A DNA stretch of 64,000 nucleotides, taken from Deroplatys truncata (lineage: Eukaryota > Arthropoda > Insecta > Mantodea > Mantidae). The notes beneath the pieces are model-generated. The model was not told the origin of the DNA. It searched no databases and saw only the letters and a program-made list of their open reading frames with translations. This document shows positions 1,809 to 45,479 of this stretch, in pieces (the stretch's first letter is position 1; each line of letters begins with the position of its first letter). The stretch is from the NCBI GenBank assembly GCA_030765065.1, contig CM060986.1:77679573-77743572 (forward strand). The letters are read 5' to 3'. Both the position numbers and the translations under genes were made by a program.

Positions 1809-1814
1809 CATGTA
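1809..1814. repeat. Left target-site duplication CATGTA
   Basis: CATGTA directly precedes the first base of the element and recurs immediately after its last base (16187-16192). A 6-bp duplication is the hallmark length for Polinton/Maverick integration. An R1 copy elsewhere (46057-46062) carries a single CATGTA at the same place, which is the empty-site configuration. Confidence 0.9.
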
Positions 1815-1880
1815 AGTATTAGGGATTTAGGGTTTCTGGCCCACTTAATATGCATGGAATGCAATTAATATGCTAATTAG

Positions 1881-1912
1881 CCCCCCGCCCCCTCCCCCTC
1901 CCCCACCCCCCG
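1881..1912 (-). repeat. C-tract near left terminus (G-quadruplex potential on minus strand)
   Basis: Runs of 4-6 C separated by single bases lie 66-97 nt from the left tip and are mirrored at 16090-16121 at the same distance from the right tip. The complement has more than four G-runs, fitting a quadruplex motif. A role in end protection or replication is inference. Confidence 0.7.
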
Positions 1913-2143
1913 CTGTGCCTTGGTAGTTTTACTTGCACCTGAGGGTCATAAATATTGTTGAGCACAATGGAAGCTTGACAGTTAAGTAATTAAGGCTGTC
2001 AATCAACTGTCAAAACGAACAAAGGGGTCATAAATTTAAGGTTCTGTAACAAAGGCGAGTTGTTTTTCCTACCCCTTCCACATCAGGTCACTTCTGCACC
2101 TGGTCAGTTACCCACCCCCACTTGCATTGTTTGTCGAACACGT

Positions 2144-2420
2144 GGCATACTCATCCCACTACTCCATAACAAAGCCTGACCCTTTCCATTCTGTAAGAGA
2201 TTCTATTGTGTGTGCCTTTCTATTGTCCCGGGCAAGCACTCTTTAGAAAGACCATCTGGCATACTCATCCCACAACCCAATAACAAAGCCTGACCCTTTC
2301 CATTGTGTAAGAGATTCTATTGTGTGTGCCTTTCTATTGTCCTGGGCAAGACTAGTTTAGAAAGACACCTGCGGCGTTCCCATCCCACTACTCCATAACA
2401 AAGCCTGACCTTTTCCATTG
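2144..2420 (+). repeat. 115-bp tandem repeat, left arm
   Basis: Three starts of the block GGCATACTCATCCCA or its variant lie at about 2144, 2258 and 2373, a period of 114-115 bp; the third copy is partial. Each unit includes CATAACAAAGCCTGACC and ends with a TAGAAAGAC block. The same array is mirrored at about 15590-15860. Confidence 0.8.
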
Positions 2421-2699
2421 TTTGACCACCTGCTAGTTAACAAAAGAATTCGAGGGTTGCTTTATACTCGTCCTGTCCTTGTTTGTGTGAAAGAGAGAGA
2501 AACTAGTTTACCAACTCTGCGTAACAACGTCAGGTCGGCCATCATGATTTTGCCTGAGGGAGTTCTCTCCGATGTTTTACGACATCCTACTAATATATCC
2601 GAGCATAGTTAACAAGCATTCTGCTTGGCCCATTTCAGGCAGTGACTGAAAAAGCGCCTAATATACATTTCATTACGTGCATTAAACCTCTGAGTGATA

Positions 2700-4740
2700 T
2701 CCATTGATCGGTGTTCGATTCTTGCTGTAATCCAAAGTTTATTGCTAATGAGAAATTAATGACTGATATTATTATATCATTACCTTAATTAATAAAAAAG
2801 GCGTTCAGAGAATTCTAGCTCGAGTCTTACCAAGTGAAACTCTAATGCGTAATAACTATTAAATTATGCACCACCAGATTAAAAATGTATTTAACAAATA
2901 TAATTAATTTTTTTATATATCATTACAATAATTAATAAAAGGGTGTTCAGAGGGTTCTAGCTCGAATCTTGCCCAATGAAACTCTAATGCTTAATAAATA
3001 TTAAACTATGCAAGATCAGATTAAAACGTGTTTAACGAATATAATTTAATTTTTATATATCATTACAATAATTAATAAAAGGTTGTTCAGGGGGTCCTAG
3101 ATCGAATCTGCGAAATTCTAATGCTTAATAAATATTAAACTATGCACGGTCAGATTAAAACGTGTTTAACAAATATAATTTAATTTATACAACATTACAA
3201 TGTTTAACGAACTGTATTGTTAGGAACCAGAGGTCCATAGTTTGAATCTTACCCTGCGAAACGTTATAATAACTATTAAAATATTGAAGTAGGGGGCGGT
3301 CGGATTAAAATTGCAATTAGCAAATTTAATTATTTATATTAAACCTGGTGCATACTTAGATATCCCGATGTCTAGACAACATTCTTTCTTCTTCTCCTCT
3401 CTTTTTCTTTCTATCTATCTCTTTCTTTCTCCACGACTTGTACACATTCAGGCGTTCGCATATACACGAGCACTTGTACACACATCGGCAAACATACACT
3501 GGTGCACGCATGCAAGCACATACACACACGCACATACATACAGCAACACACACATACATACACTAGTACACACACGCATTCACGCACCTCATGCGTGTAC
3601 CTACATACACCAGTGCTCTTACACTCACACATACATATACATGGACACACACACACATACACGCACACACACTCACGTACATACATACATACATACACCG
3701 TTACACTTGCACATACGCACACGACCACACACACACACACACACACGTGCAAGCACATATGCCTGTTCACTTACACCCAACAGCACACGATCACACACAC
3801 ACACGCGTGCAAGCACATATGCCTGTTCACTTAAACCCAACAGCGCCAACCCACACACGCACACACCAACTCACACACATGTCCTGAATGAAAAGAGACA
3901 AAATCATGCAATAAAAACTAATTATAGCTCGGGATGCAAGGCTCCATTTACGATTTGCTCGAAACCGGTCTTGATGAATGGGTTCGAATCCTAGGAGGGA
4001 TTACAAATTCATCTTCTAATAACTCCAAAACTAATTAAAATAAAGACAGTAAATAAACTTTATTACCTTTATGTCATTAGTTCCTTTCTTGAGCATGTAT
4101 ATTAGAGTCCAGGTGTCATGGGTTCGATCCTCAACTTTAAAATCTCAATTATCTCAGAAACTAGCAGGGATTAAGGTGCGGACCAAAGCACGATTTTAGT
4201 TCCTATGAGGGGCAATTAATGCTTTATATAATTTCCAATCAGTTGTCCCTAGCTCGAATCCCGATCTTTCAGTGACTTCCTTAATTTTTCACAGTGTTCT
4301 AGAATATATCACTTAGATCGATGCTGTAACTGCATATAGGTCTTTTAAACACAAGCTATTATTATAAATAATTTTGTTTCTGGCGTTCTGAGTTCGAATA
4401 CCGATTCAATGAAGTTTACTTATAAATTTAATAACAGTAAATAATTAAGACAAAGGTACCAAATAAACCCATTACGTTTATGTCATCAGATAATATCTTG
4501 CGGGCGTATATTAGGGTACCTGACGTCCAGGGTTCGATCCTTAAGTTTAAATCTCAATTATCGCAGAAACTAGCAGAGATAGAGCTGTAGACGAAAGCAT
4601 GTTTGATAGCTCATACAATGAACAATTAATGCTGTATATAATTTTCAATCAGTTGCCCATAGTTCGAATCCCGATCTTTCAATGACTTCACTGATTTTCC
4701 TCTGTACTCTAGGATACATCACTTAGATTGATGCTTTAAC
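2700..4740 (+). repeat. 130-142-bp periodic array with B-box-like motif, left arm
   Basis: A TpsiC/B-box-like motif (consensus GNTCGAATCC) recurs at 2713, 2818, 2960, 3100, 3239, 3981, 4121, 4251, 4391, 4531 and 4661. Most spacings are 130-142 bp. In the second half a 410-bp higher-order unit (three basic units) is visible: 4121 pairs with 4531, and 4251 with 4661. The 3981 copy, GGTTCGAATCC, is a perfect polymerase III B box. No folded tRNA is seen. A CA-rich block (3447-3880) interrupts the array. Confidence 0.75.
3447..3880 (+). repeat. CA-rich low-complexity block, left arm
   Basis: The block consists of ACAC/CATA/CACG iterations with an internal duplicated stretch (CAAGCACATATGCCTGTTCA near 3749 and 3809). 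Open frames across it on both strands encode only His/Thr- or Cys/Val-rich repeats and are by-products of the composition. It is mirrored at 14185-14575. Confidence 0.85.
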
Positions 4741-4782
4741 TGTATGCAGCTTTGTGTAACGACATTATGGATGTACTCTGTG

Positions 4783-4840
4783 TGAGAGAGAGCGAGAGAG
4801 GGAGAGATAGAGAGAGCGAGAGAGGGAGAGGAAGTGAAAC
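4783..4840 (+). promoter_or_regulatory. GA-repeat tract upstream of the arm promoter
   Basis: GAGAGAGA/GCGAGAGAGG iterations lie about 140-190 bp upstream of a TATA box and are mirrored at about 13245-13295. In insects such tracts can bind GAGA-type factors; that role here is inference. Confidence 0.5.
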
Positions 4841-4868
4841 AAGCAGGGATAGAAGTGCTGAGGGCCTC

Positions 4869-4984
4869 TGCGCATGCGTAGCAAGAGATGATGTCATTGG
4901 CTGCAATAATCACGTGACGTGTAAGCATCACAGCCATGATGGCGTGCCGGCATCGCCTGGAGGGGGTTTAGATCCCTATATAAA
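4869..4984 (+). promoter_or_regulatory. Promoter of the left-arm gene
   Basis: A compact motif cluster is visible: TGCGCATGCGTA (4869-4880, close to the NRF-1/erect-wing palindrome), TGATGTCA (4889-4896, CRE-like), ATTGG (4896-4900, inverted CCAAT), CACGTGACGTG (4911-4921, E-box overlapping a CRE half-site) and TATATAAA (4977-4984). The first coding ATG is at 5108, about 125 nt after the TATA box. The whole cluster is preserved in the right arm. Factor binding is inferred from motif similarity only. Confidence 0.65.
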
Positions 4985-5107
4985 CAGATATCTGCCCATG
5001 TTAGAACTGCTGTGTACTTATTAACTTTACATTCAAGATATAAAAAGCTTTAAAAGTAACGTGAGCTGCAGGCCGTCTACACATTCAGCACATATCAAAA
5101 CGTGACA

Positions 5108-6417
5108 ATGCAAGGTGAGTTCTAAATAACTACACAAAATCACTGTTGGCTTTTACAATACATTTAATTTTATTTAAATGTTACAGTACATGAAAGACGA
5201 TTCGTTACAAAGAGCATCATATTTTCTAATCTGTGCTTTACATTCACATGGATTTCACTGCATACTCTTCTTCAGTTCACGTGATTTTCGCCACACATTC
5301 TTCTTACATAAACATTCATACGATTTTCCCTCATTCTTTGTTTCACTATACACTCACATGATTTCCTCTACTCATTCTTTGTTCCCCTACAGGTTCATGC
5401 TCTGTTAACATTCACATGACTTTCTCTGCACATTCTTTGCTTCCAATAACATTCACATGATCTTCTCAACACATTATTCTTACTTAAAAATTCATATGAT
5501 TTTCCCCACTCATTCTTTGTTTCACTATACATTCGCACACGATTTCCTCTACTCATTCTTTGGTTCTCTGCTGGCTCATCTTCAATGAACATTCACATGA
5601 TTTTCTGTACTTATTCTTTGTTTCTCTACACATTAATAGGCTTACTTACAAAACATACACACCCTAGTTCTAATATAAAGAAGTGTATAACTCGTTCTTC
5701 AACTTGAATAATGTAGTGAAAATAATAATTCATGACTATGTCTGTTACAGATTGTTTAGCTGATAGACTTAACAAGATGGTGGAAGAGCGTAGTTTCCTA
5801 CCGACTCGCCGAGTTCAAGATCTCGAAATAGGTCTTAACTATGGGATAAAGTCCTTAAAGAGAGTTCAAACAAGATATGGTACCAGGATCGTATCTTCGC
5901 TGGAGGATTGTCAAGTGTTCTTGCCAGAGCGCTATAATTCGTTAACCGATCAAGAGATTGCAGAAATACCTGGGAACATATACCTCCAGTATAACGGCAT
6001 GGCAGAGACGGGGAAATTTAAGACATGTAAATTGTCTTTTTTACATGCAAAGAAGGTGCGTAGAAGTGTCAAACTTAAGTATTGAATTTTCTCCCATTTC
6101 ACAATGAAAAATTCATAAATAAAACAACTGACTCATTGATATTACATATAAAGATACAAAAGATGCATATTAAAGAATTTTATAAAAAATTTACGAAATT
6201 ACAATATCACATGCTTTGAGTTCAATTATATCTAGCGCATTGAAATAACTCTAAATATCCGATTGTTTATACAAATCTTTGTGCTTCTTTTTACATGTGC
6301 AATATGCTTCATTTTACATGTATCATAACAAAAAATGTAATTCTTTTCAGGTTGCCTTTACATGGCCAAGATAGTTTTCTATGACTTCATTGTGCAATGT
6401 TTCAGGGTGTGCAATAA
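5108..6417 (+). CDS. Three-exon Polinton arm gene, left copy; candidate ssDNA-binding-like protein with truncated tail
   Basis: Exon 1 is 7 nt (5108-5114, ATG CAA G) followed by GTGAGT; exon 2 is 5751-6055, after TCTGTTACAG; a GTGCGT donor at 6056 pairs with a TTTCAG acceptor ending at 6405. All phases join in frame. Without splicing, an ATG at 5732 gives a 117-residue frame ending at 6085, with AATAAA at 6118. The core has a Lys/Arg-rich strand pattern (SLKRVQTRYGTRIV), then DCQVFLPERYN and a short IYLQYNG strand, which suggests a small beta-barrel (OB-like) fold. Here exon 3 reads G-V-Q and then stops at TAA (6415-6417); six glutamate codons follow the stop. The right copy reads through into that acidic tail. 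A basic or beta core plus acidic tail resembles ssDNA-binding proteins, but that function is inference. It lies behind its own TATA promoter, pointing into the element. Confidence 0.7.
5115..5750 (+). repeat. Intron 1 of the left-arm gene with a degenerate 40-50-bp minisatellite
   Basis: The GT-AG intron is 636 bp. From about 5236 to 5630 it contains about nine degenerate units built on CATTCACATGATTTTC...CATTCTTTG. The right-arm intron is 814 bp because it holds more units. One unit (5408-5430) shares ACATTCACATGACTTTCTCT with the end of the R1 repeat. Confidence 0.7.
6118..6123 (+). terminator. Poly(A) signal AATAAA, left-arm gene
   Basis: AATAAA lies 33 nt after the unspliced stop codon at 6085. 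It would serve the intron-2-retained transcript; the spliced form would need another signal further on. Confidence 0.45.
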
Positions 6418-7133
6418 GAGGAAGAAGAGGAGGAATAGCCTGCTGCCATGCAAAGGATGCTGACGCTATTGGAGTGTGGAATAAGCACCATCGGCACCTA
6501 CAAGAAACGGGTGCTGAGACATCTACATCACCGAAACACATTAAGACAGGATCCTTATATAACATTACAGGGTATGCGATGAAAAAATACGGACAATTTT
6601 GTATACAATTCAATGCATAGCTGAGAGTTAGCTCGAGCGAGTCTACCTATATTCACTGAAATTAAGCATTGTGAGCAATAATTTAAGTGACTGTGAAAAT
6701 ACTTTAAGTAATGGTGAAATTTGTATCCTAAAAGACTTGAGCCCTGTATACATTAACAGCATTAAGACTGTTTGCCACGCTGGAACACAAATAATGAAAA
6801 TAAAAAGACTTTCATTTAAATAATAAGGAAATTTGCAAAACCTGCTGTTACAAGTGTAGTGACATATACAGAAACAATGAGTCGGACGAGAAAGTGATGG
6901 AAATGTAAGATAAATAATAACAATAAAAGAATTAAGGTATGCTTTTACATAGTGTTTTTATTCATTAAAAATCTTTGCATTCCTAATGAAAAATAAATCA
7001 TTATAATGATTAGTTTAAGTTATGTCACAATGATCAAAAAGAGAACAGTCTTTAGATGCATTACTCGATCTTAAGTCAGAGCATCAAAAAAAGACAAATC
7101 ACAGCTTCTCCATTTTAGATGTGGTGTCACTAT
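6418..7133 (+). other. Arm sequence between the three-exon gene and capsid-gene tail
   Basis: This stretch is conserved between the arms. A short frame (ATG near 6456, about 41 codons) follows exon 3, but I do not recognise it and it has no obvious counterpart function. The remainder is AT-rich and looks non-coding. Confidence 0.4.
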
Positions 7134-7227
7134 TCAGGAAAATTCCTGTAACACAGCAGCTTGAGTATGCAGATCCGTGGTCCTAAATGGGTGAAACAGA
7201 GTCTTATCCAGCTTAACAGTCTTGAGG
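7134..7227 (-). pseudogene. Duplicated 3' tail of the double-jelly-roll-like capsid gene, left arm
   Basis: The minus strand encodes the same last about 30 residues (including FHPFRTTDLH) as the right-arm copy at 10668-10761, ending in a stop at 7134. Upstream of residue KTVKL it runs directly into the minisatellite, so only the tail was duplicated. This fixes the arm-duplication breakpoint inside the capsid-like gene. Confidence 0.6.
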
Positions 7228-8957
7228 TCACCTTTTTTCCCTTTGCTGGTCACCTTTTTCCCTTTTCTGGTCACATTTATCCCTTTGGTGGTCACGTTTT
7301 TCCCTTTGCAGGTCACGTTTTTCCCTCTTCTGGTCTCATTTTTCCCTTTATTGGTCATATTTTCCCTTTGCTGGTCACATTTTTCCCTTTGCTGGTCACA
7401 TTTTTCCCTTTGCTGGTCACCTTTTTCCCTTTGCTGTCACGTTTTTCCCTTCGCTGGTCACATTTTTACCTTTGCAAGTCACGTTTTTCCCTTTGCAGGT
7501 CACATTTTTACCTTTGCAAGTCACGTTTTTCCCTTTGCAGGTCACCTTTTTCCCGTTGCTGGCCACCTTTTTCCCTTTGCTGGTCACATTTTTCCCGATG
7601 CTGGTCACCTTTTTCCCTTTGCAGGTTCGGTTTTTCCCTCTTCTGGTCCCATTTTTCCCTTTGCTGGTCACATTTTTCCCTTTGCTGGTCACATTTTTCC
7701 CTTTGCTGTCACGTTTTTCCCTTTGCTGGTCACATTTTTCCCTTTGCAGGTCACGTTTTTCCCTTTGCTGGTCACATTTTTCCCTTTGCAGGTCACCTTT
7801 TTCCCTTTGCTGGCCACCTTTTTCCCTTTGCTGGTCACATTTTTCCCGATGGTGGTCACCTTTTTCCCTTTGCAGGTCACGTTTTTCCCTCTTCTGGTCC
7901 CATTTTTCCCTTTACTGGTCACCTTTTTTTCCTTTGCTGGTCACATTTTTCCCTTTGCTGGTCACATTTTTCCCTTTGCTGGTCACATTTTTCCCTTTGC
8001 TGGTCACGTTTTTCCCTTTCCTGGTCACCTTTTTTCCTTTGCTGGTCACGTTTTTCCCTTTGCTGGTCACCTTTTTCCCTTTTCTGGTCACCTTTTTCCC
8101 TTTTCTGGTCACCTTTTTCCTTTGCTGGTCACCTTTTTCCATTTTTTGGTCAAGTTTTTCCCTTTGCTGGTCACCTTTTTCCCTTTGCTGGTAACGTTTT
8201 TCCCTTTGCTGGTCACGTTTTTCCCTTTGCTGGTCACCTTTTTCCCTTTGCTGGTCACCTTTTTCCCTTTGCTGGTCACATTTTTCCCTTTGCTGGTCAC
8301 GTTTTTCCCTTTGATGGTCACCTTTTTCCCTTTTCTGGTCACGTTTTTCCCTTTGCTGGTCACGGTTTTCCCTTTGCTGGTCACCTTTTTTCCTTTGCTG
8401 GTAACGTTTTTCCCGTTGCTGGTCACCTTTTTCCCTTTGCTGGTCATGTTTTTCCCGTTGCTGGTCACCTTTTTTCCCATTGCTGGTCACGTTTTTCCCT
8501 TTGCTGGTCACCTTTTTTCCTTTGCTGGTAACGTTTTTCCCGTTGCTGGTCACCTTTTTCCCTTTGCTGGTCATGTTTTTCCCGTTGCTGGTCACCTTTT
8601 TTCCCATTGCTGGTCACGTTTTTCCCTTTGCTGGTCACCTTTTTTCCCTTTGCTGGTCACATTTTTCCCTTTGCTGGTCACCTTTTTCCCTTTGCTGGCC
8701 TTTTCCCTTTGCTGGTCACCTTTTCCCTTTGCCGGTCACCTTTTTCCCTTTGCTGGCCACATTTTTCCTTTGCCGGTCACGTTTTTCCCTTTGCTGGTCA
8801 CGTTTTTCCCTTTGCTGGTCACCTTTTTTCCCTTTGCTGGTCAGATTTTCCCTATGCTGTCACCTTTTTCCCCTTGCTGGTCACGTTTTTCCCTTTGCTG
8901 GTCACGTTTTTCCCTTTGCTGGTAACATTTTTCCCTTTGCTGGTCACCTTTTCCCTG
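7228..8957 (+). repeat. 21-bp minisatellite (about 82 units)
   Basis: The consensus unit is CACNTTTTTCCCTTTGCTGGT, where N is A, G or C. Variants (TTCTGGT, CGATGCTGG, CTGTCAC) build higher-order duplications: a block near 8381 recurs at 8508 (about 127 bp, six units), and one near 7594 recurs at 7845 (about 251 bp, twelve units). Because 21 is divisible by 3, several frames stay open for hundreds of codons, giving FPFAGHL or FPLLVTF heptads on plus and KGKNVTS heptads on minus. These are arithmetic by-products rather than genes. The array abuts the inner end of the left arm. Confidence 0.95.
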
Positions 8958-9076
8958 AATGGGTTACATGATAGGCAAGTCAAGAACATTGACATGAAAC
9001 AGTTTTCCACTAGTTCACATCTAAAGTCGCTTTCAAAGTCTAACATATCAATAGGCTGTGAGCATTCTTGTTTCAT
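8958..9076 (-). CDS. Short unknown frame next to the minisatellite
   Basis: The minus strand from 9076 encodes about 43 residues (starting MKQECSQPIDMLDF) before entering the minisatellite frame. A TTTACTTTAG acceptor-like site lies just upstream. I do not recognise it; it may be the edge of another Polinton gene cut by the array, or chance. Confidence 0.2.
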
Positions 9077-9210
9077 CCTCTCTAGCTTGACAGCTAAAGT
9101 AAAATAAATCGCTCTTAATGTATATACGCTAATGAGAAAGTATAAAAGAACTATCCTGAATAAAAATCGATTAGTATAACGTGAGAGCTAAGGTGGTTAA
9201 GCTCGCAAGA

Positions 9211-9826
9211 GGTTTCGGTTTAATTAACTCTCTCACTAGCCTGCAACCGTTGAACTACATTTACCTGGTTACATAGGCTGAGGAACTGTGGTAAAGCTAG
9301 AGAAAAATTAAAGAGAGGAGACCCTGGAATCATTCCGTTAGACGATTCGTGTAATCTTAGTGGCATTGCCAACGCTCAGCATAAGGTCTCTGCTTCGAGA
9401 AACATTGCTGACAAGATCTGGCTGAAACGACTTGGAAAAGCGTGCAAACATCTGATGTTACATTAGATGAAAAAGTTGGCAGCGTGACTAGTAACAGCAA
9501 TTATGAAGGGAAAGGTAGCTCCAGGTGCAGTAACCACGAAGAAGAAACGAGGAGGATTTCTACCGCTCATACCAATTATTGCAGCACTAGGAGCCGCCGC
9601 TGGAGGTGCATCACAAATTGCTAAAGCTGTAAATACGAAAAAAGCTGCAGATGAACAACTTGCTGAAATGATGAGACGTAATAGAGAAATTGAAGCAAGA
9701 GGGAGAGGTTTTCGAGTGAAGAAGAATAAGGGAAGAAACACAGAAACGAAGAGGAGACAGAGCCAGAAAGGGAATTCAAAAACTCAGGCAGAGGGCTATA
9801 ATTGTCCCGGAAAAAACATTGAGTAA
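9211..9826 (+). pseudogene. Broken phospholipase-A2-like / basic core protein gene of Polinton type
   Basis: In related Polinton/adintovirus and parvovirus capsid proteins, a short PLA2 domain helps membrane escape and a Lys/Arg-rich, Gly/Ala hydrophobic segment follows (pX/core-like). Here the remnant shows GFGLIN, then VELHLPGY in another frame, a stop (TGA 9279-9281), a further shift, then REKLKRGDPGIIPLDDSCN and, in the same frame, stops at 9464-9466 (TAG) and 9485-9487 (TGA). The position expected for the catalytic His-Asp pair reads Ser-Gly. After ATG 9503 a 107-codon frame stays open: KKKRGGFLPLIPIIAALGAA (hydrophobic Gly/Ala segment), an IAKAVN helix, then a basic tail. So the PLA2 half is dead; the core half could still be translated. 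Confidence 0.75.
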
Positions 9827-9905
9827 CATAGACCTTGACTTGTACGCCCGACGTTTAAAGATTCCTCATATTAGGATGCGAATGTCTTCTTTATTAGATC
9901 AGTGA
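9798..9905 (+). pseudogene. N-terminal remnant of an adenain-like (Ulp1/C48) Polinton protease
   Basis: Overlapping the end of the preceding remnant in another frame, 35 codons read LSNIDLDLYARRLKIPHIR and then stop at 9903-9905. In Polintons the cysteine protease gene follows the core protein, and its N-terminus has this L-x-N/D-x-D-L...YA-x-x-L-K-I-P pattern before the catalytic region. The His, Asp and Cys catalytic segments are absent. The assignment rests on this short motif and the gene order. Confidence 0.45.
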
Positions 9906-9926
9906 ATAATAATAATAAAAATGTCA

Positions 9927-10352
9927 TTAAAATGTCCTTTCACTTTTGATTTTTTCCAGTAATTGTTCTATAGGAACGTTCTGTGGCCCTTCAGTGACAA
10001 AGTTAATCCATCTAATCAGCTGTCTGAATCTGATTTCCTAGTGAATATATTTAGGTTGAGCATCATACGAATTTAGCACAGTATTGCATCAGTCTCCTTC
10101 CTCTATAGTAAAAGTGGACACTCCATCTACTAGTGTTCCCATCTGTTACGGCTGGATAACGTATTTCACAGGAACCTTCAAATCAAATTTTACCTGTTGT
10201 TCATAAAGATCCGCTTCATAGAGCAAACAGGGGAGCCTAACAGCAATATCATTGCCTTTAGAAACAAGGATATAAGCATAATGCCTATAGTTTTTAGAAG
10301 AAGTCAACGACGTCGAGGATATAATAATGGAATGATTCGACGCACACATCAT
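9927..10352 (-). pseudogene. Minus-strand Polinton-like gene remnant, unknown function, three in-frame stops
   Basis: One minus-strand frame runs from 10352 to the TAA at 9929-9927, about 141 codons, with only three internal stops: TAA 10148-10146, TGA 10091-10089 and TAG 10040-10038. No frameshift is needed. Protein-like stretches are visible: NYRHYAYILVSKGNDIAV, LPCLLYEADLYEQQVKFDL, MGTLVDGVSTFTIEEGD, and RFRQLIRWINFVTEGPQNVP. It is divergent from the capsid-like gene that begins nearby. I cannot name the family with confidence; a minor capsid or penton-like protein is one possibility. The frame without its stops would still be shorter than a full penton. Confidence 0.5.
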
Positions 10353-10761
10353 GCTCTGCCCATGACGCCCATCAGGTTAACATCACGCAATCAGCAGTTC
10401 CTACAGTTATTGGGCTTCAGAATCCTATAATCATGGACATCTTCAATGCTACCGACACCGAGATTCGACGACAAGATCACTAAGAAGAGGAACATGTGTT
10501 TTCACCATATAATACATCAGCTTTGGACTCTAACAACGAGTTTAGAATCCCTTGTCAAGTTGAACATTTATATACTTTACACCGTCTCAGGGTGAAGAGA
10601 ATGCTGTTGTTAAACCTGTACTCATCGAGTGGAGAAGGCTTGTGATTCGACTTTCTGATGCTGAGATCCTCAAGACTGTTAAGCTGGATAAGACTCTGTT
10701 TCACCCATTTAGGACCACGGATCTGCATACTCAAGCTGCTGTGTTACAGGAATTTGCCTGA
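10352..10761 (+). pseudogene. Double-jelly-roll major-capsid-like gene, internally deleted
   Basis: A plus-strand frame around ATG 10433 reads NPIIMDIFNATDTEIRR, hits TAA at 10481-10483, and continues in frame with EEEHVFSPYNTSALDSNNE and FRIPCQVEHLYTL. After a shift near 10590 another frame gives VLIEWRRLVIRLSDAEILK, then FHPFRTTDLH, ending at TGA 10759-10761. Arthropod Polinton double-jelly-roll proteins have a comparable N-terminus (acidic, Tyr-rich, then a strand with IP) and a W...SDAE...PFR.WDL segment near the C-terminus. These proteins are normally several hundred residues, so most of the gene is gone. The last 94 nt lie within the inverted arm and are duplicated at 7134-7227. Confidence 0.45.
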
Positions 10762-11456
10762 ATAGTGACACCACATCTAAAATGGAGAAGCCGTGATTTG
10801 TCTTTTTTTGATGCTCTGACTTAAGATCGAGTAATGCATCTAAAGACTGTTCTCTTTCTGATCATTGTGAAATAACTTAAACTAATCATTGTAATGATTT
10901 ATTTTTCATTAGGAATGCAAGGATTTTTAATGAATAAAAACACTATGTAAAAGCATACCTTAATTCTTTTATTGTTATTATTTATCTTACATTTCCATCA
11001 CTTTCTCGTCCGACTCATTGTTTCTGTATATGTCACTACACTTGTAACAGCAGGTTATGCAAATTTCCTTATTATTTAAAAGAAAGTCTTTTTATTTTCA
11101 TAATTTGTGTTCCAGCGTGGCAAACAGTCTTAATGCTGTTAATGTATACAGGGCTCAAGTCTTTTAGGATACAAATTTCACCATTACTTAAAGTATTTTC
11201 ACAGTCACTTAAATTATTGCTCACAATGCTTAATTTCAGTGAATATAGGTAGACTCGCTCGAGCTAACTCTCAGCTATGCATTGAATTGTATACAAAATT
11301 GTCCGTATTTTTTCATCGTATACCCTGTAATGTTATATAAGGATCCTGTCTTAATGTGTTTCGGTGATGTAGATGTCTCAGCACCCGTTTCTTGTAGGTG
11401 CCGATGGTGCTTATTCCACCCTCCAATAGCGTCAGCATCCTTTGCATGACAGCAGG

Positions 11457-12966
11457 CTATTCCTCTTCTTCTTCCTCATATTGCACACCCTGAAACATTG
11501 CACAATGAAAGTCTTAGAAAACTATCTTGGCCAAGTAAAGGCAACCTGGAAAGAATTACATTTTTTGTTAAGATACATGTAAAATGAAGCATATGATACA
11601 TGTAAAATGAAGCACAAAGATTTGTATAAACATTCGGATATTTAGAGTTATTTCAATGCGCTAGATATAATTAAACTCAGAGCATGTGATATTGTGATTT
11701 CGTAAATCTTTTATAAAATTCTATAATATGCATCTTTTGTATCTTTATATGTAATATCAATGAGTCAGTTGTTTTATTTATGAATTTTTCATTGTGAAAT
11801 AGGAGAACATTCAATACTTAAGTTTGACACTTCTACGCACCTTCTTTGCATGTAAAAAAGACAATTTACATGTCTTAAATTTCCCCGTCTCTGCTATGCC
11901 ATTATACTGGAGGTATACGTTCCCAGGTATTTCTGCAATCTCTTGATCGGTTAACGAATTATAGCGCTCTGGCAAGAACACTTGACAATCCTCCAGCGAA
12001 GATACGATCCTGGTAACATATCTTGTTTGAACTCTCTTTAAGGACTTTATCTCATAGTTAAGACCTATTTCGAGATCTTGAACTCTACGAGTCGGTAGGA
12101 AACTACGCTCTTCAACCATCTTTTTAAGTCTATTAGCTAAACAATCTGTAACAGACATTGTCATGAATTATTATTTTCACTACATTATTCAAGTTGAAGA
12201 ACAAGTTATACACTTCTTTATATTAGAACTAGGGTGTGTATGTTTTGTAAGTAAGCCTATGAATATGTAGAGAAACAAAGAATAAGTACAGAAAATCATG
12301 TGAATGTTCATTGAAGATGAGCCAGCAGAGAACCAAAGAATGAGTAGAGGAAATCGTGTACGAATGTATAGTGAAACAAAGAATGAGTGGGGAAAATCAT
12401 ATGAATGTTTAAGTAAGAAGAACGTGTTGAGAAGATCATGTGAATATTAATGGCACCAAAGAATGTGCAGAGAAAGTCGTGTGAATGTTAACAAAGCATG
12501 AACCTGCAGGGGAACAAAGAATGAGTAGAGGAAATCATGTGAGTGTATAGTGAAACAAAGAATAAGGGGGAAAGTCGTATGAATGTTTATGCAAGAAGAA
12601 TGTGTAGCGAAAATCATGTGAATGTTAATGGAAGCAAAGAATGTGCAGAGAAAGTCATGTGAATGTTAACAGAGCATGAACCTGTAGGGGAACAAAGAAT
12701 GAGTAGAGGAAATCATGTGAGTGTATAGTGAAACAAAGAATGAGGGAAAATCGTATGAATGTTTATGTAAGAAGAATGTGTGGCGAAAATCACGTGAACT
12801 GAAGAAGAGTATGCAGTGAAATCCATGTGAATGTAAAGCACAGATTAGAAAATATGATGCTCTTTGTTACGAATCGTCTTTCATGTACTGTAACGTTTAA
12901 ATAAAATTAAATGTATTGTAAAAGCCAACAGTGATTTTGTATAGTTATTTAAAACTCACCTTGCAT
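11457..12966 (-). CDS. Three-exon Polinton arm gene, right copy; candidate ssDNA-binding-like protein with acidic tail
   Basis: Exon 1 is 12966-12960 (ATG CAA G), exon 2 is 12145-11841 and exon 3 is 11489-11457. Introns of 814 and 351 bp have GT-AG ends, and the exon lengths (7, 305 and 33 nt) keep one frame, giving 114 residues. The protein ends HAKKGVQYEEEEEE, an acidic tail after a basic, strand-rich core. Across the 354-nt unspliced frame I count about 11 substitutions against the left copy, roughly six changing residues (Asp/Asn, Asn/Lys, Gly/Glu, Gly/Val, Ile/Val, Met/Ile), so selection on both copies is not evident. This copy keeps the tail that the left copy lost to one base change. 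ssDNA-binding is inferred from the OB-like pattern plus acidic tail, not from a recognised signature. Confidence 0.75.
12146..12959 (-). repeat. Intron 1 of the right-arm gene with expanded minisatellite
   Basis: The intron is 814 bp. From about 12290 to 12840 it repeats units built on CAAAGAATGAGTAGAGGAAATCATGTGAATG. It has roughly four more units than the left arm. Confidence 0.7.
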
Positions 12967-13089
12967 TGTCACGTTTTGATATGTGCTGAATGTGTAGACG
13001 GCCTGCAGCTCACGCTCCTTTTAAAGCTCTTTAAAGCTTGAATGTAAAGTTAGTAAGTACACAGCAGTTCTAACATGGGCAGATATCTG

Positions 13090-13205
13090 TTTATATAGGG
13101 ATCTAAACCCCCTCCAGGCGATGCCGGCACGTCATCATGGCTGTGATGCTTACACGTCACGTGATTATTGCAGCCAATGACATCTCTTGCTACGCATGCG
13201 CAGAG
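13090..13205 (-). promoter_or_regulatory. Promoter of the right-arm gene
   Basis: Mirror of the left promoter: TATATAAA on the minus strand (13097-13090), then CACGTCACGTG, inverted CRE/CCAAT motifs and the TACGCATGCGCA palindrome near 13192-13203. Motif order and spacing match the left arm. Confidence 0.65.
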
Positions 13206-13379
13206 GCCCTCAGCACTTCTATCCCTGCTTGTTTCACTTCCCCTCCCTCTCTCGCTCTCTCTCTCCCTCTCTCGCTCTCTCTCACACAGAGTACATCCAT
13301 AATGTCGTTACACAAAGCTGCATACAGTTAAAGCATCAATCTAAGTGATGTATTCTAGAGTACAGAGGAAAATCAGTGA

Positions 13380-15300
13380 AGTCATTGAAAGATCGGGATT
13401 CGAACTATGGGCAACTGATTGAAAATTATATACAGCATTAATTGTTCATTGTATGAGCTATCAAACATGCTTCGTCTACAGCTCTATCTCTGCTAGTTTC
13501 TGCAATAATTGAGATTTTAACTTAAGGATCGAACCCTGGACGTCAGGTACCCTAATATACGCCCGCAAGATATTATCTCATGATATAAACGTAATAGGTT
13601 TATTTGGTACCTTTGTCTTAAATATTTACTGTTATTAAATTTATAAGTAAACTTCATTGAATCGGTATTCGAACTCAGAACGCCAGAAACAAAATTATTT
13701 ATAATAATAGCTTGTGTTTAAAAGACCTGTATGCAGTTACAGCATCGATCTAAGTGATATATTCTAGAACACAGTGGAATATTAAGGAAGTCACTGAAAG
13801 ATCGGGATTCGAGCTAGGGACAACTGATTGGAAATTATATAAAGCATTAATTGCCCCTCATAGGAACTAAAAATCGTGCTTTGTTCCGCACCTTAATCCC
13901 TGCTAGTTTCTTGAGATAATTGAGATTTTAAAGTTGAGGATCGAACCCATGACACCTGGACTCCAATATACATGCTCAAGAAAGGAACTAATGACATAAA
14001 AGTAATAAAGTTTATTTACTGTCTTTATTTTAATTAGTTTTGGAGTTATTAGAAGATGAATTTGTAATCCCTCCTAGCATTCGAACCCATTCATCAAGAC
14101 CGGTTTCGAGCAAATCGTAAATGAAGCCTTGCATCCCGAGCTATAATTAGTTTTTATTGCATCATTTTGTCTCTTTTCATTCAGGACATGTGTGTGAGTT
14201 GGTGTGTGCGTGTGTGGGTTGGCGCTGTTGGGTTTAAGTGAACAGGCATATGTGCTTGCACGCGTGTCTGTGTGTGTGGTCGTGTGCGTATGTGCAAGTG
14301 TAACGGTGTATGTATGTATGTACGTGAGTGTGTGTGTGCGTGTATGTGTGTGTGTCCATGTATATGTATGTGTGAGTGTAAGAGCACTGGTGTATGTAGG
14401 TACACGCATGAGGTGCGTGAATGCGTGTGTGTACTAGTGTATGTATGTGTGTGTTGCTGTATGTATGTGCGTGTGTGTATGTGCTTGCATGCGTGCACCA
14501 GTGTATGTTTGCTGATGTGTGTACAAGTGCTCGTGTATATGCGAACGCCTGAATGTGTACAAGTCGTGGAGAAAGAAAGAGATAGATAGAAAGAAAAAGA
14601 GAGGAGAAGAAGAAAGAATGTTGTCTAGACATCGGGATATCTAAGTATGCACCAGGTTTAATATAAATAATTATATTTGCTAATTGCAATTTTATTCCGA
14701 CCGCCCCCCTGCTTCAATATTTTAATAGTTATTATAACGTTTCGCAGGGTAAGATTCAAACTATGGACCTCTGTTTCCTAACAATACAGTTCGTTTAACA
14801 TTGTAATGTTGTATAAATTAAATTATATTTGTTAAACACGTTTTAATCTGACCGTGCATAGTTTAATATTTATTAAGCATTAGAATTTCGCAGATTCGAT
14901 CTAGGACCCCCTGAACAACCTTTTATTAATTATTGTAATGATATATAAAAATTAAATTATATTCGTTAAACACGTTTTAATCTGATCTTGCATAGTTTAA
15001 TATTTATTAAGCATTAGAGTTTCATTGGGCAAGATTCGAGCTAGAACCCTCTGAACACCCTTTTATTAATTATTGTAATGATATATAAAAAATTAAATTA
15101 TATTTGTTAAATACATTTTTAATCTGGTGGTGCATAGTTTAATAGTTATTACGCATTAGAGTTTCACTTGGTAAGACTCGAGCTAGAATTCTCTGAACGC
15201 CTTTTTTATTAATTAAGGTAATGGTATAATAATATCAATCGTTAATTTCTCATTAGCAATAAACTTTGGATTACAGCAAGAATCGAACACCGATCAATGG
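13380..15300 (-). repeat. 130-142-bp periodic array with B-box-like motif, right arm
   Basis: Mirror of 2700-4740. The motif on the minus strand recurs near 13396, 13526, 13666, 13804, 13938, 14078, 14752, 14893, 15033, 15175 and 15280, again interrupted by a CA/TG block. Confidence 0.75.
14185..14575 (-). repeat. TG-rich low-complexity block, right arm
   Basis: Mirror of the CA-rich block of the left arm but lacking one internal duplication, so shorter. Confidence 0.85.
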
Positions 15301-15589
15301 ATATCACTCAGAGGTTTAATGCACGTAATGAAATGTATATTAGGCGCTTTTTCAGTCACTGCCTGAAATGGGCCAAGCAGAATGCTTGTTAACTATGCTC
15401 GGATATATTCGTAGGTTGTCGTAAAACATCGGAGAGAACTCCCTCAGGCAAAATCATGATGGCCGACCTGACGTTGTTATGCAGAGTTGGTAAACTAGTT
15501 TCTCTCTCTTTCACACAAACAAGGACAGGACGAGTATAAAGCAACCCTCGAATTCTTTTGTTAACTAGCAGGTGGTCAAACAATGGAAA

Positions 15590-15860
15590 AGGTCAGGCTT
15601 TGTTATGGAGTAGTGGGATGGGAACGCCGCAGGTGTCTTTCTAAACTAGTCTTGCCCAGGACAATAGAAAGGCACACACAATAGAATCTCTTACACAATG
15701 GAAAGGGTCAGGCTTTGTTATTGGGTTGTGGGATGAGTATGCCAGATGGTCTTTCTAAAGAGTGCTTGCCCGGGACAATAGAAAGGCACACACAATAGAA
15801 TCTCTTACAGAATGGAAAGGGTCAGGCTTTGTTATGGAGTAGTGGGATGAGTATGCCACG
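15590..15860 (-). repeat. 115-bp tandem repeat, right arm
   Basis: Mirror of 2144-2420, with the same two-and-a-fraction copies. Confidence 0.8.
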
Positions 15861-16089
15861 TGTTCGACAAACAATGCAAGTGGGGGTGGGTAACTGACCA
15901 GGTGCAGAAGTGACCTGATGTGGAAGGGGTAGGAAAAACAACTCGCCTTTGTTACAGAACCTTAAATTTATGACCCCTTTGTTCATTTTGACAGTTGATT
16001 GACAGCCTTAATTACTTAACTGTCAAGCATCCATTGTGCTCAACAAGATTTATGACCCTCAGGTGCAAGTAAAACTACCAAGGCACAGC

Positions 16090-16121
16090 GGGGGGTGGGG
16101 GAGGGGAAGGGGGCGGGGGGC
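16090..16121 (+). repeat. G-tract near right terminus (quadruplex potential)
   Basis: G-runs of 4-6 separated by one or two bases, 66-97 nt from the right tip, matching the left C-tract. Confidence 0.7.
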
Positions 16122-16186
16122 TAATTAGCATATTAATTGCATTCCATGCATATTAAGTGGGCCAGAAACCCTAAATCCCTACTACT

Positions 16187-16192
16187 CATGTA
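16187..16192. repeat. Right target-site duplication CATGTA
   Basis: Exact copy of 1809-1814, directly after the terminal ACTACT of the element. Confidence 0.9.
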
Positions 16193-17617: not shown

Positions 17618-17657
<40 letters not shown>

Positions 17658-18400
17658 AAACAGCATAACTCAAAAACGAAAAGCCGGATAAATACCAAAT
17701 TTGTTATTTAGGTTCAGTACCTTCTACGGATACGAAAAGAAGACTCGCAAAATTTCTAACCCCCTAAACTACTCTTTATCTGGAACATTTTTAGAAAGTT
17801 TTTATTTTTTAAAAACTGGCACTAACAAGTTTGCTTAAAATACCACCTATTAAAGACATTTACATGACGAATAAAATGTATATCTTGAATTTTCTCGGAA
17901 TAGCCTGTGAAGTCCTCTTCATTCGGAAGGAATTTTGTATAATCTTGTGTAACCGGTAAAGGTAAGCTGTAGAGGAAAACGTACTGCACAAGAAAGTGTA
18001 GATCTTTAAAACAAAAAATTTATTTTTTAAAATAAAACTATTTGTGGAATCCTTAATTTCCGAGATATCTGCTATTAATGGTTCGACTTATTTTTCGTTA
18101 TGTAGTCATTCGGTTAATATCCTGTCGATTTCCAGTTGTTTCTCGCGATGTGAATGAAAAGAGTATGGATGTTTAAGGCCGACGTATACCGTCTACTTCC
18201 TAAACATTTGACTGTCGCTATCCCCTTTGTATCCATAAATAAATATGTTATGTAGCTATTCTGCAAAGGTTTATTTCGATTAAAATGTAGTAGATAGAAA
18301 AAAAGCTTTAATAAAACTGGTTTGTACACCTATTAGTAAATGATAGAGGGTAGAGAAAGCCATGTGTATGTATCGCATCAGAATTGTTTTTAAAATAGTT
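17525..18400 (+). repeat. R1 interspersed repeat
   Basis: Near-complete plus-orientation copy with an expanded (TG)n tract at 17620-17656 at the usual internal position, then AACTCAAAAACGAAAAGCCGG and the downstream blocks to GTAGAGAAAGCCATGTG. Confidence 0.8.
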
Positions 18401-28554: not shown

Positions 28555-29665
28555 TACGTACATAGGGTAGAGAAGGTGTTGTATTCCACCCAAAAATGTG
28601 ATGCGAGATTTCACCGGAAATACACGTTTTGAGACCCATTGAATGAAAACACATGTTTAGAAAATGTGTGTGTCTTTGAGCAGTATAACTCAAAAATGAA
28701 AAATCGGATAAGTACCTAGCTTGGTATTTAGGTTCAGTACCTTCCACAGATGAGACACACAGATTTTCAACAAAATCCCCCCACTGCAAACTACATTTTA
28801 CATGGACCATTTTTCGAAATTCTTTATTGTCTTAAAATGGCTCTAAAGATTTTGATTAAAATACTGTATATTAACAATGTTTACATGACAAATCAAATGT
28901 ATATTTTCAATTTTGTGGAAATAGCTTGTGATGTCCAGTTCATTCGGAAAGAATTTTGTATAATGTTGTATAACTGGTAAATGTTAAGCTATAGGAAAAA
29001 CGTACTACACAAAAATGTAGATTTCTTTAAAACACACTGCTTACTTTAAATAACTTTTTGGTGGCATTAGCCATTTCCGAGACATCCATTATTAATGGTT
29101 GGAACTTCTCCCCTTGAAGTTTAACATCCTGTAACTTGGTAGGTTATATCGGGCGCTGAACGAATGAAAAGGATGAAATCATGCTCAAATAAGCCCGAAG
29201 ACCATAGAGATTAAACTTAACTGACATTCATTTTCTCAGGATAAGGAAAACCCCGGAAAAAAGCTATTCCACTGACCCACCCTAACCGAAATTCGAATTC
29301 GGGACCTCTTGAATGCGAGGCAGACACGCTATCCCTACACCACAGTGGCGGGCTAGTAGTTCGAATTGTTTTAATACTTTGTCATTTTTATCAAGTCCCT
29401 TCGATTTTCACTTGTTTCTCGCGATTTCAAGGAAACAGTATGGAATTTCAAGGCCAGCATTTAGTGTCCAGTTCTTAAACAGTTGACTATTGTGATATCC
29501 TTTATATCTATAACGAAACGTGTAATGTAGCTATTTCTGCAAAGGTTTATTTGTATTAAAATGAATTAAATCGACAAAAATAGCTTTCATATGAATAGTT
29601 TTTTGATATCCACTGTTAATAAATAATAGAGGGTAGAGAAAATTATGAGTATGTAACACATTAGA
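28555..29665 (+). repeat. R1 interspersed repeat interrupted by a SINE
   Basis: Plus-orientation copy with all R1 blocks, split by a minus-strand SINE at about 29118-29355; R1 resumes with AGTTCGAATTGTTTTAATAC. Confidence 0.8.
29118..29355 (-). repeat. tRNA-derived SINE nested in R1
   Basis: The minus strand begins GCCCGCCACTGTGGTGTAGG, has an A-box-like GGTGTAGGGATAGCG, and a B-box-like AATTCGAATTTC about 45 nt later after CTCGCATTCAAGAGGTCC. A SINE body with TTTTCCTTATCCTGAG follows. Order and spacing match tRNA-derived SINEs. Confidence 0.75.
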
Positions 29666-38955: not shown

Positions 38956-39829
38956 CTATTTAATGTAGACGCACTATTTCGGTTTTCTGCTGATATTAGG
39001 AATCATTGTCATATCATTGGCTCTCTAATATTCTTTTCTTTGGTAAAAAGGTTTGGTCATCACCTTGCTTCTCTGCCATAATCACTGATTATAACCTCGA
39101 TGTGCCTTAAGTATTAAGTACTTTACCATAGTATGGTCTTAATTTACATAACATGTGTATGTAATCAAACTTTGCAAATGTTTGTACTGTAACAGTATGA
39201 AGGACAACTTTTAGGTACGTTTTAATATGATTTCGGCGTATTACGTAAATCAAAAATTGAATGTTTTGGTTTCTTTCTATTCACATATTCCTCCTGTAAA
39301 AATAAAACCCCACACAAAGAGACAACGTTAACACCAAACATGGCAAAAACAATTCAAATTTCTAGTTAACTGCATAATTACTCATACTCACAATTGGTAG
39401 TAACCTAATAGCCTAATAACCTAAGCTAATAATTAAATGTACGTATAATTAGCCTAATTAATGTAACTTTAATCTAATATAAATAGTAATGTAATTACTA
39501 TAATCATATGATTGATAAAATTAATCAGTGCCTCAATTGGTGACTACATGTACGGAGTATAAAGTTTGAACACCGGAATATAAAAACAGGACGCCAAAGT
39601 AACAGATAAAATATAATCAAACCTACCGATATATGTAACAGTGGTCTATGCGCAGAAGTTGCCTGTTATGAATGGAACCGAACAACCCGAAAATCACCAC
39701 ATTCTAGTGACTTGTCCCATAATAGTGGAAAAATGTCAAAGTTTTAGTTTAGTAACCTCTCGTGTATTGTAACCTCTATATCCGCTTATTATAAGTCAGA
39801 CTTTCGCTTTGGTTTACTGTATTATTACT
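38956..39829. other. Unannotated AT-rich DNA
   Basis: Nothing recognised; a run of short TAACCTAATA/CCTAAGC iterations lies near 39400-39480. Confidence 0.4.
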
Positions 39830-39957
39830 TTTTCTACCACGTACATAGAAGTTGGAGAAGGTATTGCATTCCATACAAAAATTAGATACCGAGGTTTCAC
39901 CGGAAATACATATTTTGTGAACCCTGAATCCAAGAAAAGCGTTCTTAGATAAGGTTC

Positions 39958-39990
<33 letters not shown>

Positions 39991-40755
39991 TATGTGTGTG
40001 TGAGCGCATAGTTTAAGAACGAAAAGTCGGATAAATACAAAAGTTGATATTTAGGTTCAGTATTCTTCAAAGATGACAGAAAAAGATTTTCAAAAAAATC
40101 CCCTTATCCGAAACTTCTCTTTACATGCAATATGTTTCGAAACTTTTGATTTTCTAAAAATTGGCTCTGACGATTTTGATTAAAATACCATATATTAAAG
40201 ACATTTACATGACAAATAACATGACGTGTGTCTTAAATTTTCTGGGAATAAGCTTTGAAGTCCTCTTCATTCGGAATGACGTCAACGTTAAACAGTAGAC
40301 GGAAACATACTACAACAAACTTGTAGATCTATCTAAAACACACAATTTATTTCCGACATATCCGTTATTAATGGTTCGAATTGTTCAACACGCCATACGT
40401 TTAAAGTCCTGTCGATTTTCAATTGTTTCTCACGATTGCATGGAAACAGTATGAAATTTTAAGACCAATATATAGCGTACAGTTTTTAAACATTTGGTTT
40501 TCGCTGTTCCGTTTATTTCTATAACGAAACATGTAATGTAGCTATTTCTGCAGAGGTTTATCTCGATTAAAATGAAGCAGATATAAAAATAAGCTTTCAT
40601 AATATTTTGTATATCCACTAATAAACGAACGAAATGTGTAATGAAATTTTATCTTGATTGGAAAGAAGTGGATAGGAGAATAAACTTTTGTAATAATGAG
40701 TTACATAAGAATATAAAATGTCATGTGAATGTGACACATCAGACTGTTTTATTTC
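39830..40755 (+). repeat. R1 interspersed repeat
   Basis: Plus-orientation copy with an internal TG/CGTG tract (39960-40003). A roughly 70-bp extra segment near 40640-40705 precedes the terminal GTCATGTGAATGTGACACATCAGA. Confidence 0.75.
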
Positions 40756-45430: not shown

Positions 45431-45479
45431 GAGAAAACACGCCATTAATAAACCACGAAAAACAGGACAACATTTTAAA

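What the first reader, a model, noticed from the sequence alone, without database searches (positions are those of the whole stretch)
1815..16186. Palindromic Polinton-like element with gene-bearing 5.4-kb inverted arms
The 14.4-kb element has exact 6-bp duplications (CATGTA), AGT-type termini and capsid-module remnants, but its terminal repeats are more than 5 kb and each contains a full promoter, a spliced gene and several satellite arrays. Polinton terminal repeats are normally about 0.1-1 kb. The structure resembles a snap-back or defective-interfering genome made by copying one end onto the other, which is plausible for a protein-primed linear replicon. It may represent a distinct non-autonomous Polinton type that mobilises in trans.
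Basis: partly seen in the sequence, partly recalled or inferred. Interest (0 to 1): 0.9.

Follow-up and report, generated by a model that had tools for sequence, protein, structure and literature searches.

The report
Fold-back Polinton with mirrored gene-bearing ends
A virus-like jumping element in this animal-type genome has had one end copied onto the other, so it is almost a mirror image of itself; this genome holds a family of such elements and one separate, very recent case, which suggests that these elements copy themselves as free linear DNA and sometimes fold back while doing so.

Summary
Window 1815-16186 is one insertion flanked by CATGTA; six related copies of the surrounding repeat show the empty site. 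Its mirrored arms (5,413 and 5,519 bp) differ at 103 of 5,337 aligned bases, so the second arm is not an assembly duplicate. Ten further insertions fetched from the same 4.29-Gb genome share the termini and have their own 6-bp duplications; eight of them carry 5.2-6.6-kb arms with the same gene (one arm split by a retroelement, two gene copies damaged). Five of five copies where the fold junction was read share it, so the family has one origin. No polymerase or integrase gene was found in the family. The centre keeps remnants of PLA2-PX and protease genes of a second Polinton lineage ("P") in this genome. One P insertion on contig C7 is an independent, very recent fold-back: 17,048 bp, TSD AACGAT, arms of about 8.3 kb, 385-bp loop inside the integrase gene. 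Best reading: fold-back replication of a free linear Polinton, followed by integration, gives palindromes like defective viral genomes, and one became a transposon family. Mobilisation in trans is inferred. The arm gene is unidentified.

The parts
1809..1814 (.). left target-site duplication CATGTA
   Evidence: read directly; single copy at the matching site of 5 of 6 paralogous empty sites, CAGATA in the sixth
16187..16192 (.). right target-site duplication CATGTA
1815..7227 (+). left inverted arm, 5,413 bp (terminus AGTA..., TA-rich repeats, CA-rich repeats, promoter and gene)
10668..16186 (-). right inverted arm, 5,519 bp, 98.1% identical to the left over aligned positions
5108..6055 (+). 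arm gene, left copy, predicted by eye: ATG at 5108, intron 5115-5750, exon 2 5751-6055; last exon uncertain (acceptor before 6351 or 6406); ORF 5732-6085
   Evidence: across 14 gap-free full copies dN/dS about 0.35 between elements
11841..12145 (-). arm gene exon 2, right copy (ORF 11811-12164)
7226..8956 (.). 21-bp satellite, about 83 copies, in the unique centre
9254..9466 (+). remnant of a phospholipase A2-like domain (N-terminal half of the PLA2-PX gene)
   Evidence: score 95 against the lineage-P PLA2-PX protein, best of 1000 shuffles 50; that protein has Pfam PF08398 at 3e-14
9503..9826 (+). PX-like core protein ORF; one PX domain where E2, E3, E9 and E10 have two in tandem
   Evidence: Pfam Adeno_PX E 2.5e-5, just under the cut-off; 65% identity to P0001 over 54 positions
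9720..9905 (+). remnant of the N-terminus of a protease-like gene (the adenoviral-type label is recalled)
   Evidence: score 89 against the lineage-P protease-like ORF, best of 1000 shuffles 48
10131..10667 (+). piece broken by stops that lies in BOTH arms of canonical relatives but only once here; identity not established
   Evidence: no Pfam, PDB or shuffle support as capsid

Best explanation
The window holds a member of a family of non-autonomous, palindromic Polintons. An ancestral Polinton lost its integrase side when DNA synthesis on a free linear molecule folded back near the start of the integrase gene and copied the virion-gene end a second time in mirror image. The product had two good termini, could be inserted by a Polinton integrase with a 6-bp duplication, and has since spread by using enzymes of other Polintons. 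Shown: the mirror architecture, independent insertions, one shared fold junction, a pattern on the arm gene like that of purifying selection, remnants of a PLA2-PX/protease Polinton, and an independent recent fold-back in lineage P. Inferred: that synthesis was protein-primed, that it happened on extrachromosomal DNA, that helpers act in trans, and that the outer arms are re-copied from one another during cycles.
For: 11 of 11 elements examined (window plus 10 fetched; 13 inverted terminus pairs counted by eye among 40 scored hits of 3,195 candidates, the other 14 hits having no scored partner) have 6-bp duplications; E7 has one extra base between duplication and terminus. No terminus copy lies inside any of the 11. 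9 of 11 carry gene-bearing arms of 5.2-6.6 kb; E1 and E8 are internal-deletion forms. The fold junction is identical in 5 of 5 copies where I read it and lies 38 bp after the stop of the X gene in the 2 of 4 copies where the marker was found. Left and right outer arms of one element are sisters in 9 of 11, inner arms in 6 of 9. The outer half is less diverged than the inner at p<0.05 in 5 of 8, with E4 at 0 of 3,094 against 11 of 3,094. C7 fold-back: 17,048 bp, TSD AACGAT, 385-bp loop, arms 99.6-99.8% identical where read at length, no inner terminus in the parts read. The 38 other lineage-P loci among 40 scored hits of 1,583 candidates show no mirrored partner in that list.
Against: No free DNA intermediate, reads or transcripts could be examined. 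The inner-arm tree does not pair W, E3 and E5, and the divergence gradient is reversed in E7 and not significant in E2 and E9; gene conversion after insertion could also equalise arms. No autonomous Polinton with the window family's termini was found; the 35 kb fetched of families A and E share no DNA with it. No clear microhomology marks the C7 fold.
Confidence: 0.75

Rival explanations
1. The inverted arms arose inside the chromosome after insertion, by inverted duplication or break-induced fold-back, and gene conversion keeps the arms alike.
For: Chromosomal palindromes are known to convert (recalled); arm identity varies along the arms.
Against: Eleven insertions at different sites, each with its own 6-bp duplication, share one fold junction where it survives and was read (5 of 5), so the palindrome existed before these insertions. 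The C7 palindrome has the duplication exactly at its outer ends.
Confidence: 0.08
2. Two Polintons inserted next to each other in opposite orientation, followed by a deletion between them.
For: The genome is full of Polintons, so close insertions happen.
Against: The outer duplications match each other in 11 of 11 and in C7, which two independent insertions would not give. No copy of the family's terminus lies inside any of the 11 elements, and none of C7's own terminus in the parts of C7 read (the earlier pattern check did not cover the C7 terminus). Copies of the window family meet at the same junction.
Confidence: 0.05
3. The long arms are ordinary Polinton terminal repeats that grew stepwise by terminal gene conversion in the linear form, not by one fold-back.
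For: Outer tracts are more alike than inner ones in 5 of 8 elements; long terminal repeats are reported in Polinton-like viruses (PMC4642659, passages seen).
Against: The shared abrupt junction after the X gene and the single sharp loop in C7 fit one event better. Stepwise growth may still act on top.
Confidence: 0.15
4. Assembly artefact: one arm was duplicated by the assembler.
For: Long inverted repeats are hard to assemble; no reads were available.
Against: The two arms differ by 103 substitutions and several indels, the element ends in a clean duplication against a repeat whose empty sites are known, and long gene-bearing arms recur at 9 of 11 loci. E4 and C7, with arms near 99.8%, are less protected from this objection.
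Confidence: 0.03

Closest known systems
Polinton/Maverick elements (including adintovirus-like Polintons with PLA2-PX genes; the adintovirus label is recalled)
   Same: 6-bp duplications, AGT...ACT-type ends, terminal inverted repeats, PX/PLA2 and protease-like gene remnants; lineage P in the same genome has rve integrase, packaging-ATPase-like and PLA2-PX genes
   Different: arms of 5-6.6 kb carrying a gene; no polymerase or integrase found in the family; about three quarters of the window copy is mirrored
Snapback genomes of adeno-associated virus (PMC8235507, outline and abstract seen)
   Same: double-stranded genome in a folded-back configuration holding one part of the genome; described as a class of defective particles
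   Different: AAV is not protein-primed (recalled) and these particles are virion products; here the fold-backs are integrated and one has become a family
Symmetric recombinant adenovirus genomes (recalled, not seen in any call)
   Same: protein-primed linear DNA virus with both ends derived from one end of the genome
   Different: not integrated with target duplications; known from passaged virus
Foldback/Galileo-type transposons with long inverted repeats (PMC3573991, start of abstract in a listing)
   Same: long, internally repetitive inverted repeats, structural plasticity
   Different: Galileo is classed with the P element by its transposase; here the ends, the 6-bp duplication and the genes are of Polinton type
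Palindromic insertions in fish pangenomes (PMC11202377, passages seen)
   Same: a class of polymorphic segments whose inverted repeats fill more than 90% of their length is named there, and Maverick families with terminal repeats are reported
   Different: the passages seen do not link the palindromes to Mavericks

Membership tests
Polinton/Maverick | 6-bp target-site duplication | tested here: met
   11 of 11 elements (E7 with one extra base), plus C7
Polinton/Maverick | terminal inverted repeats with AGT-type ends | tested here: met
   AGTA/AGTAG...ACT in 11 of 11; the end motif as a hallmark is recalled
Polinton/Maverick | terminal repeats of about 0.1-1 kb | tested here: not met
Polinton/Maverick | protein-primed DNA polymerase B gene | tested here: not met
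   no ORF of such size other than repeat-coded ones in the window element, and in E10 none outside the inserted retroelement; in the rest of the family the mapped features plus X account for the elements
Polinton/Maverick | rve integrase gene | tested here: not met
   as above for the window family, by ORF listing and feature map, not by a Pfam scan of every element; present in the C7 fold-back (PF00665)
Polinton/Maverick | virion genes (PX/core, protease, ATPase, capsid proteins) | tested here: inconclusive
   PX ORF and PLA2/protease remnants found; capsid and ATPase not found
Non-autonomous Polinton | mobilised by an autonomous element with matching ends | not tested
   Polinton polymerase matches abound but no partner with these termini was found in the 35 kb fetched from two families
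Snap-back / defective-interfering genome | one genome end present twice in mirror image, other end missing, short single-copy loop | tested here: met
   C7: 385-bp loop, arms 99.6-99.8% where read at length; window family: with a larger single-copy centre
Snap-back / defective-interfering genome | interferes with or depends on a helper | not testable with these tools
   needs experiments

The most novel reading that the evidence does not exclude
Polintons of this animal-type genome replicate as free, protein-primed linear DNA that sometimes snaps back. The folded products integrate like normal elements, and one has lived on as a self-maintaining satellite transposon. It keeps its arms alike by re-copying kilobases from the ends and carries a selected gene of unknown function in two doses, perhaps to help or to parasitise its helper Polintons.
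Probability: 0.4. Interest if true: 0.85.

Novelty: new variant of a known kind. Interest (0 to 1): 0.75.

Why it matters
Polintons are thought to replicate by protein priming outside the chromosome, but to my knowledge (recalled) this has not been shown directly in animals. Palindromic insertions with one clean duplication at the outer ends, sharing one fold junction across sites, are what a fold-back on a free linear molecule before integration would leave. They give that question a genomic fossil record. They also suggest that a product like a defective viral genome can become a transposon family. I saw no paper describing palindromic Polintons in the listings, which search openly licensed PMC papers only and showed part of the matching papers in most cases.

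Tried and rejected
Arm gene identity: no relative in the protein collection, in viral contigs, phages, Pfam or PHROGs, and only chance-level PDB matches (best E 0.71). A single-sequence AlphaFold model was too poor to use (mean pLDDT 40), so no fold search was run. By eye it recalls a small nucleic-acid-binding protein, but nothing supports that.

Capsid identity of 10131-10667: no Pfam, PDB or shuffle support. Most of its stops recur in the 10 copies of the all-frame read-out, so this piece was probably broken before the family spread.

Autonomous partner: family A has integrase with chromodomain and dUTPase, families A and E have polymerase matches, but the 35 kb fetched of them share no DNA with the window family. 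PolB beside a single-copy lineage-P locus (L077) rests only on a YMDTDS motif seen by eye and recalled; Pfam, PDB, phage and viral searches gave nothing useful, and tblastn against the fetched PolB pieces, which stop before this region, gave no hit. Viral-contig searches for the PX proteins found nothing. Genome searches with the arm-gene exon did not complete, so the copy number of the family is unknown. The pairs C14:109219427-109231939 and C7:204435411-204453833 and the 14 terminus hits without a scored partner were not fetched. In the dN/dS count 14 of 19 rows were used: E3_L and E10_R are partial, E9_L and E9_R have a 6-base gap, E1_R has a 10-base gap and shifted frame. In one search, three of seven window pieces matched lineage P; the other four did not. 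The pattern check for termini did not cover C7's own terminus and was replaced.
Full report
What is in the window. The element at 1815-16186 starts AGTATTAGGG and ends CCCTACTACT and is bounded by CATGTA on both sides. It sits inside a dispersed repeat; the joined flanks align through the junction to six other copies of that repeat in the window. Five of the six show a single CATGTA and one shows CAGATA at the site, so the boundaries are those of a real insertion. The arms are 1815-7227 and 10668-16186. Over 5,337 aligned positions they differ at 103, with a 178-bp satellite unit extra on the right and 64 bp extra on the left. The differences are fewer near the ends: 20 of 1,800 in the outermost part against 83 of 3,537 further in, p 0.0015; the cut was one of three tried, the others giving p 0.02. 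The centre holds a 21-bp satellite of about 83 units, then a PX-like ORF.

A family in the same genome. The host assembly, unnamed, has 4.29 Gb in 818 contigs; 'animal-type' is my inference. The left terminus had 3,195 first-look candidates, of which 40 were scored; among these I count by eye 13 inverted pairs less than 30 kb apart, and 14 hits without a scored partner. I fetched 10 pairs besides the window. All 11 elements have their own 6-bp duplication: CATGTA, AACATT, CACGCG, CAGGTC, CTTCTG, TATGTG, CATAAT, GACATG (with one extra base on the left), GCGGTG, TAGGCC, TTCATG. None has a further copy of the terminus inside. Mapping the window's features on them gives a canonical form (E2, E3, E4, E5, E9, E10). 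Its arms are mostly 5.9-6.6 kb and contain terminus, TA- and CA-rich repeats, promoter and gene, inner arm, the piece of window 10131-10667 and part of the next 300 bp; its centre holds satellite, PLA2-PX and a region I call X. Nine of 11, including the window, have gene-bearing arms of 5.2-6.6 kb (for eight of them). Exceptions inside these nine: E5's right arm (5.2 kb) lacks promoter and first exon, E3's left arm lacks the start of the main exon, and E10's left arm is interrupted by a gypsy-like LTR element. The window element lost the left copy of that piece and X. E6 and E7 have single-copy centres of only about 0.47 and 0.68 kb, E8 has 2.3-kb arms without the gene, and E1 keeps only 1.3 kb of one arm.

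One origin, then spread. In five of five copies where the border of X and the copied arm was read (E2, E3, E4, E9, E10) the junction is the same, GAGTTAG|AAAGATTCC, whereas the native side reads GACGTTT|AAAGATTCC or a close variant in the two copies shown. In E2 and E9 it lies 38 bp after the X stop codon; in E3 and E4 the marker string was not found. X encodes a 198-aa frame in E2, E3 and E9 with a sub-threshold BED finger match (E 0.011) and a C-terminus resembling the 261-aa gene that precedes the integrase in lineage P (pairwise E 1e-4). So the side that should carry the integrase was replaced by a mirror copy of the other end.

Arms that stay alike. In a tree of the outer 1.2 kb the two arms of one element are sisters in 9 of 11 elements; E1 and E2 are unresolved. 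Within-element divergence there is 0-2.3%; between elements it is 1.3-8.5%, mean 6.4%. For the inner arm the pairing is resolved in 6 of 9; W, E3 and E5 are not paired, and within-element values (0.3-3.1%) overlap the between-element ones (1.5-4.5%, mean 2.8%). Along the arms the outer half is less diverged than the inner in W, E3, E4, E5 and E6 (p 0.048 to 5e-13), reversed in E7 (p 4e-4) and not significant in E2 and E9; E1, E8 and E10 were not in this test. E4 has no difference in its outer 3,094 positions and 11 in the inner 3,094. This fits repeated copying from the ends. It does not prove it, since conversion after insertion would also do this.

The arm gene. Fourteen gap-free full copies of its main exon, of 19 rows, have no stop. 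Between elements (85 pairs, not independent) mean dS is 0.038 and mean dN 0.013. In an alignment of nine arms, one per element, the exon is the least diverged of the listed parts (1.7% pairwise, against 4.1% in intron 1 and 6.3% at the terminus), but the inner arm and the piece of 10131-10667 are also low (2.8-2.9%). This suggests selection while the family was active. Within the window copy there are 6 amino-acid changes and 5 silent ones over the ORF. Its function is unknown.

Source lineage and the second fold-back. A search with P0001 gave 150 scored hits of 3,419 candidates; many sit in 224-aa frames. By eye, two inverted pairs lie less than 11 kb apart, on C7 and C16. I read C7 in pieces. 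The flanking 2.6-kb pieces are mirror images at 99.6% over 2,567 bp; the centre has arms of 1,874 bp at 99.8% around a 385-bp loop; five outer 150-bp probes match at 149-150 of 150 and the next five do not. About 3 kb of each outer arm was sampled only by four of these probes. The ends are C7:206337044 and 206354091, each bordered by AACGAT: a 17,048-bp insertion with arms of about 8.33 kb. Its arms encode PLA2-PX (PF08398, 3e-14), a packaging ATPase-like protein (Pox_A32, 3e-6), a protease-like frame (no Pfam support of its own) and an rve integrase; the integrase runs on through the loop on one side and is cut at the fold on the other. Of the ATPase hits 40 of 1,583 candidates were scored; they fall at 39 loci and only C7 has a mirrored partner in that list. 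At one of the 38 others (C5), a 1.2-kb piece lying about 1-2 kb beyond the point that corresponds to the C7 fold shares no DNA with the C7 pieces and carries a frame with a polymerase-like YMDTDS motif (recalled; not confirmed). Fold-back therefore looks rare and derived in lineage P. Three of seven pieces of the window's centre match lineage P, in the same order: PLA2 (score 95, shuffle maximum 50), PX (196, 63), protease-like N-terminus (89, 48); the other four do not.

Mechanism. The simplest account is a template switch during synthesis of a free linear Polinton: the growing strand turns back in or next to the integrase gene and copies its own or the sister strand to the end. The product has two identical termini and can be inserted by a Polinton integrase. 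The C7 loop has no clear microhomology. Helpers are plausible: 152 polymerase match rows from 76 scored of 11,882 candidates, many with long open frames, are reported in the genome. Whether any helper recognises these termini is untested.

What it is not. Chromosomal inverted duplication, two neighbouring insertions and an assembly duplicate each fail on the duplications, on the shared junction, on the lack of inner termini or on the arm differences, as set out under the rivals. It is filed as a variant of Polintons, not as a full member, because polymerase and integrase genes were not found and the repeats are far longer than usual.

Noticed in passing
C7:206337044-206354091 (L052-L064, L075, L076): Independent fold-back Polinton of lineage P with arms of about 8.3 kb, 385-bp loop in the integrase gene, TSD AACGAT.
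   Followed up: yes
G000 C16:114629458 (-) and C16:114640100 (+): A second inverted pair of PX genes less than 11 kb apart, possibly another palindromic lineage-P element.
   Followed up: no
L048-L051: Two Polinton families (A and E) with long open frames: rve+chromo integrase and dUTPase shown for A, polymerase matches for both.
   Followed up: partly
L025 3623 to L026 1623: Gypsy-like LTR retrotransposon (named by eye from its ORFs) inserted in the left arm of E10, with two LTR-like copies.
   Followed up: partly
window 17620-18400, 28566-29104, 39814-40628, 45469-46283, 51827-52393 and others: Dispersed repeat that hosts the insertion; many copies, mostly 72-86% alike.
   Followed up: partly
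window 61826-62230 (-) and 48020-48403 (+): Tc1/mariner-type transposase fragments (HTH_Tnp_Tc3_2, below the Pfam cut-off).
   Followed up: no
L027 2526-3062: PX gene with two PX domains in tandem, as in E2, E3 and E9; the window copy has one.
   Followed up: yes
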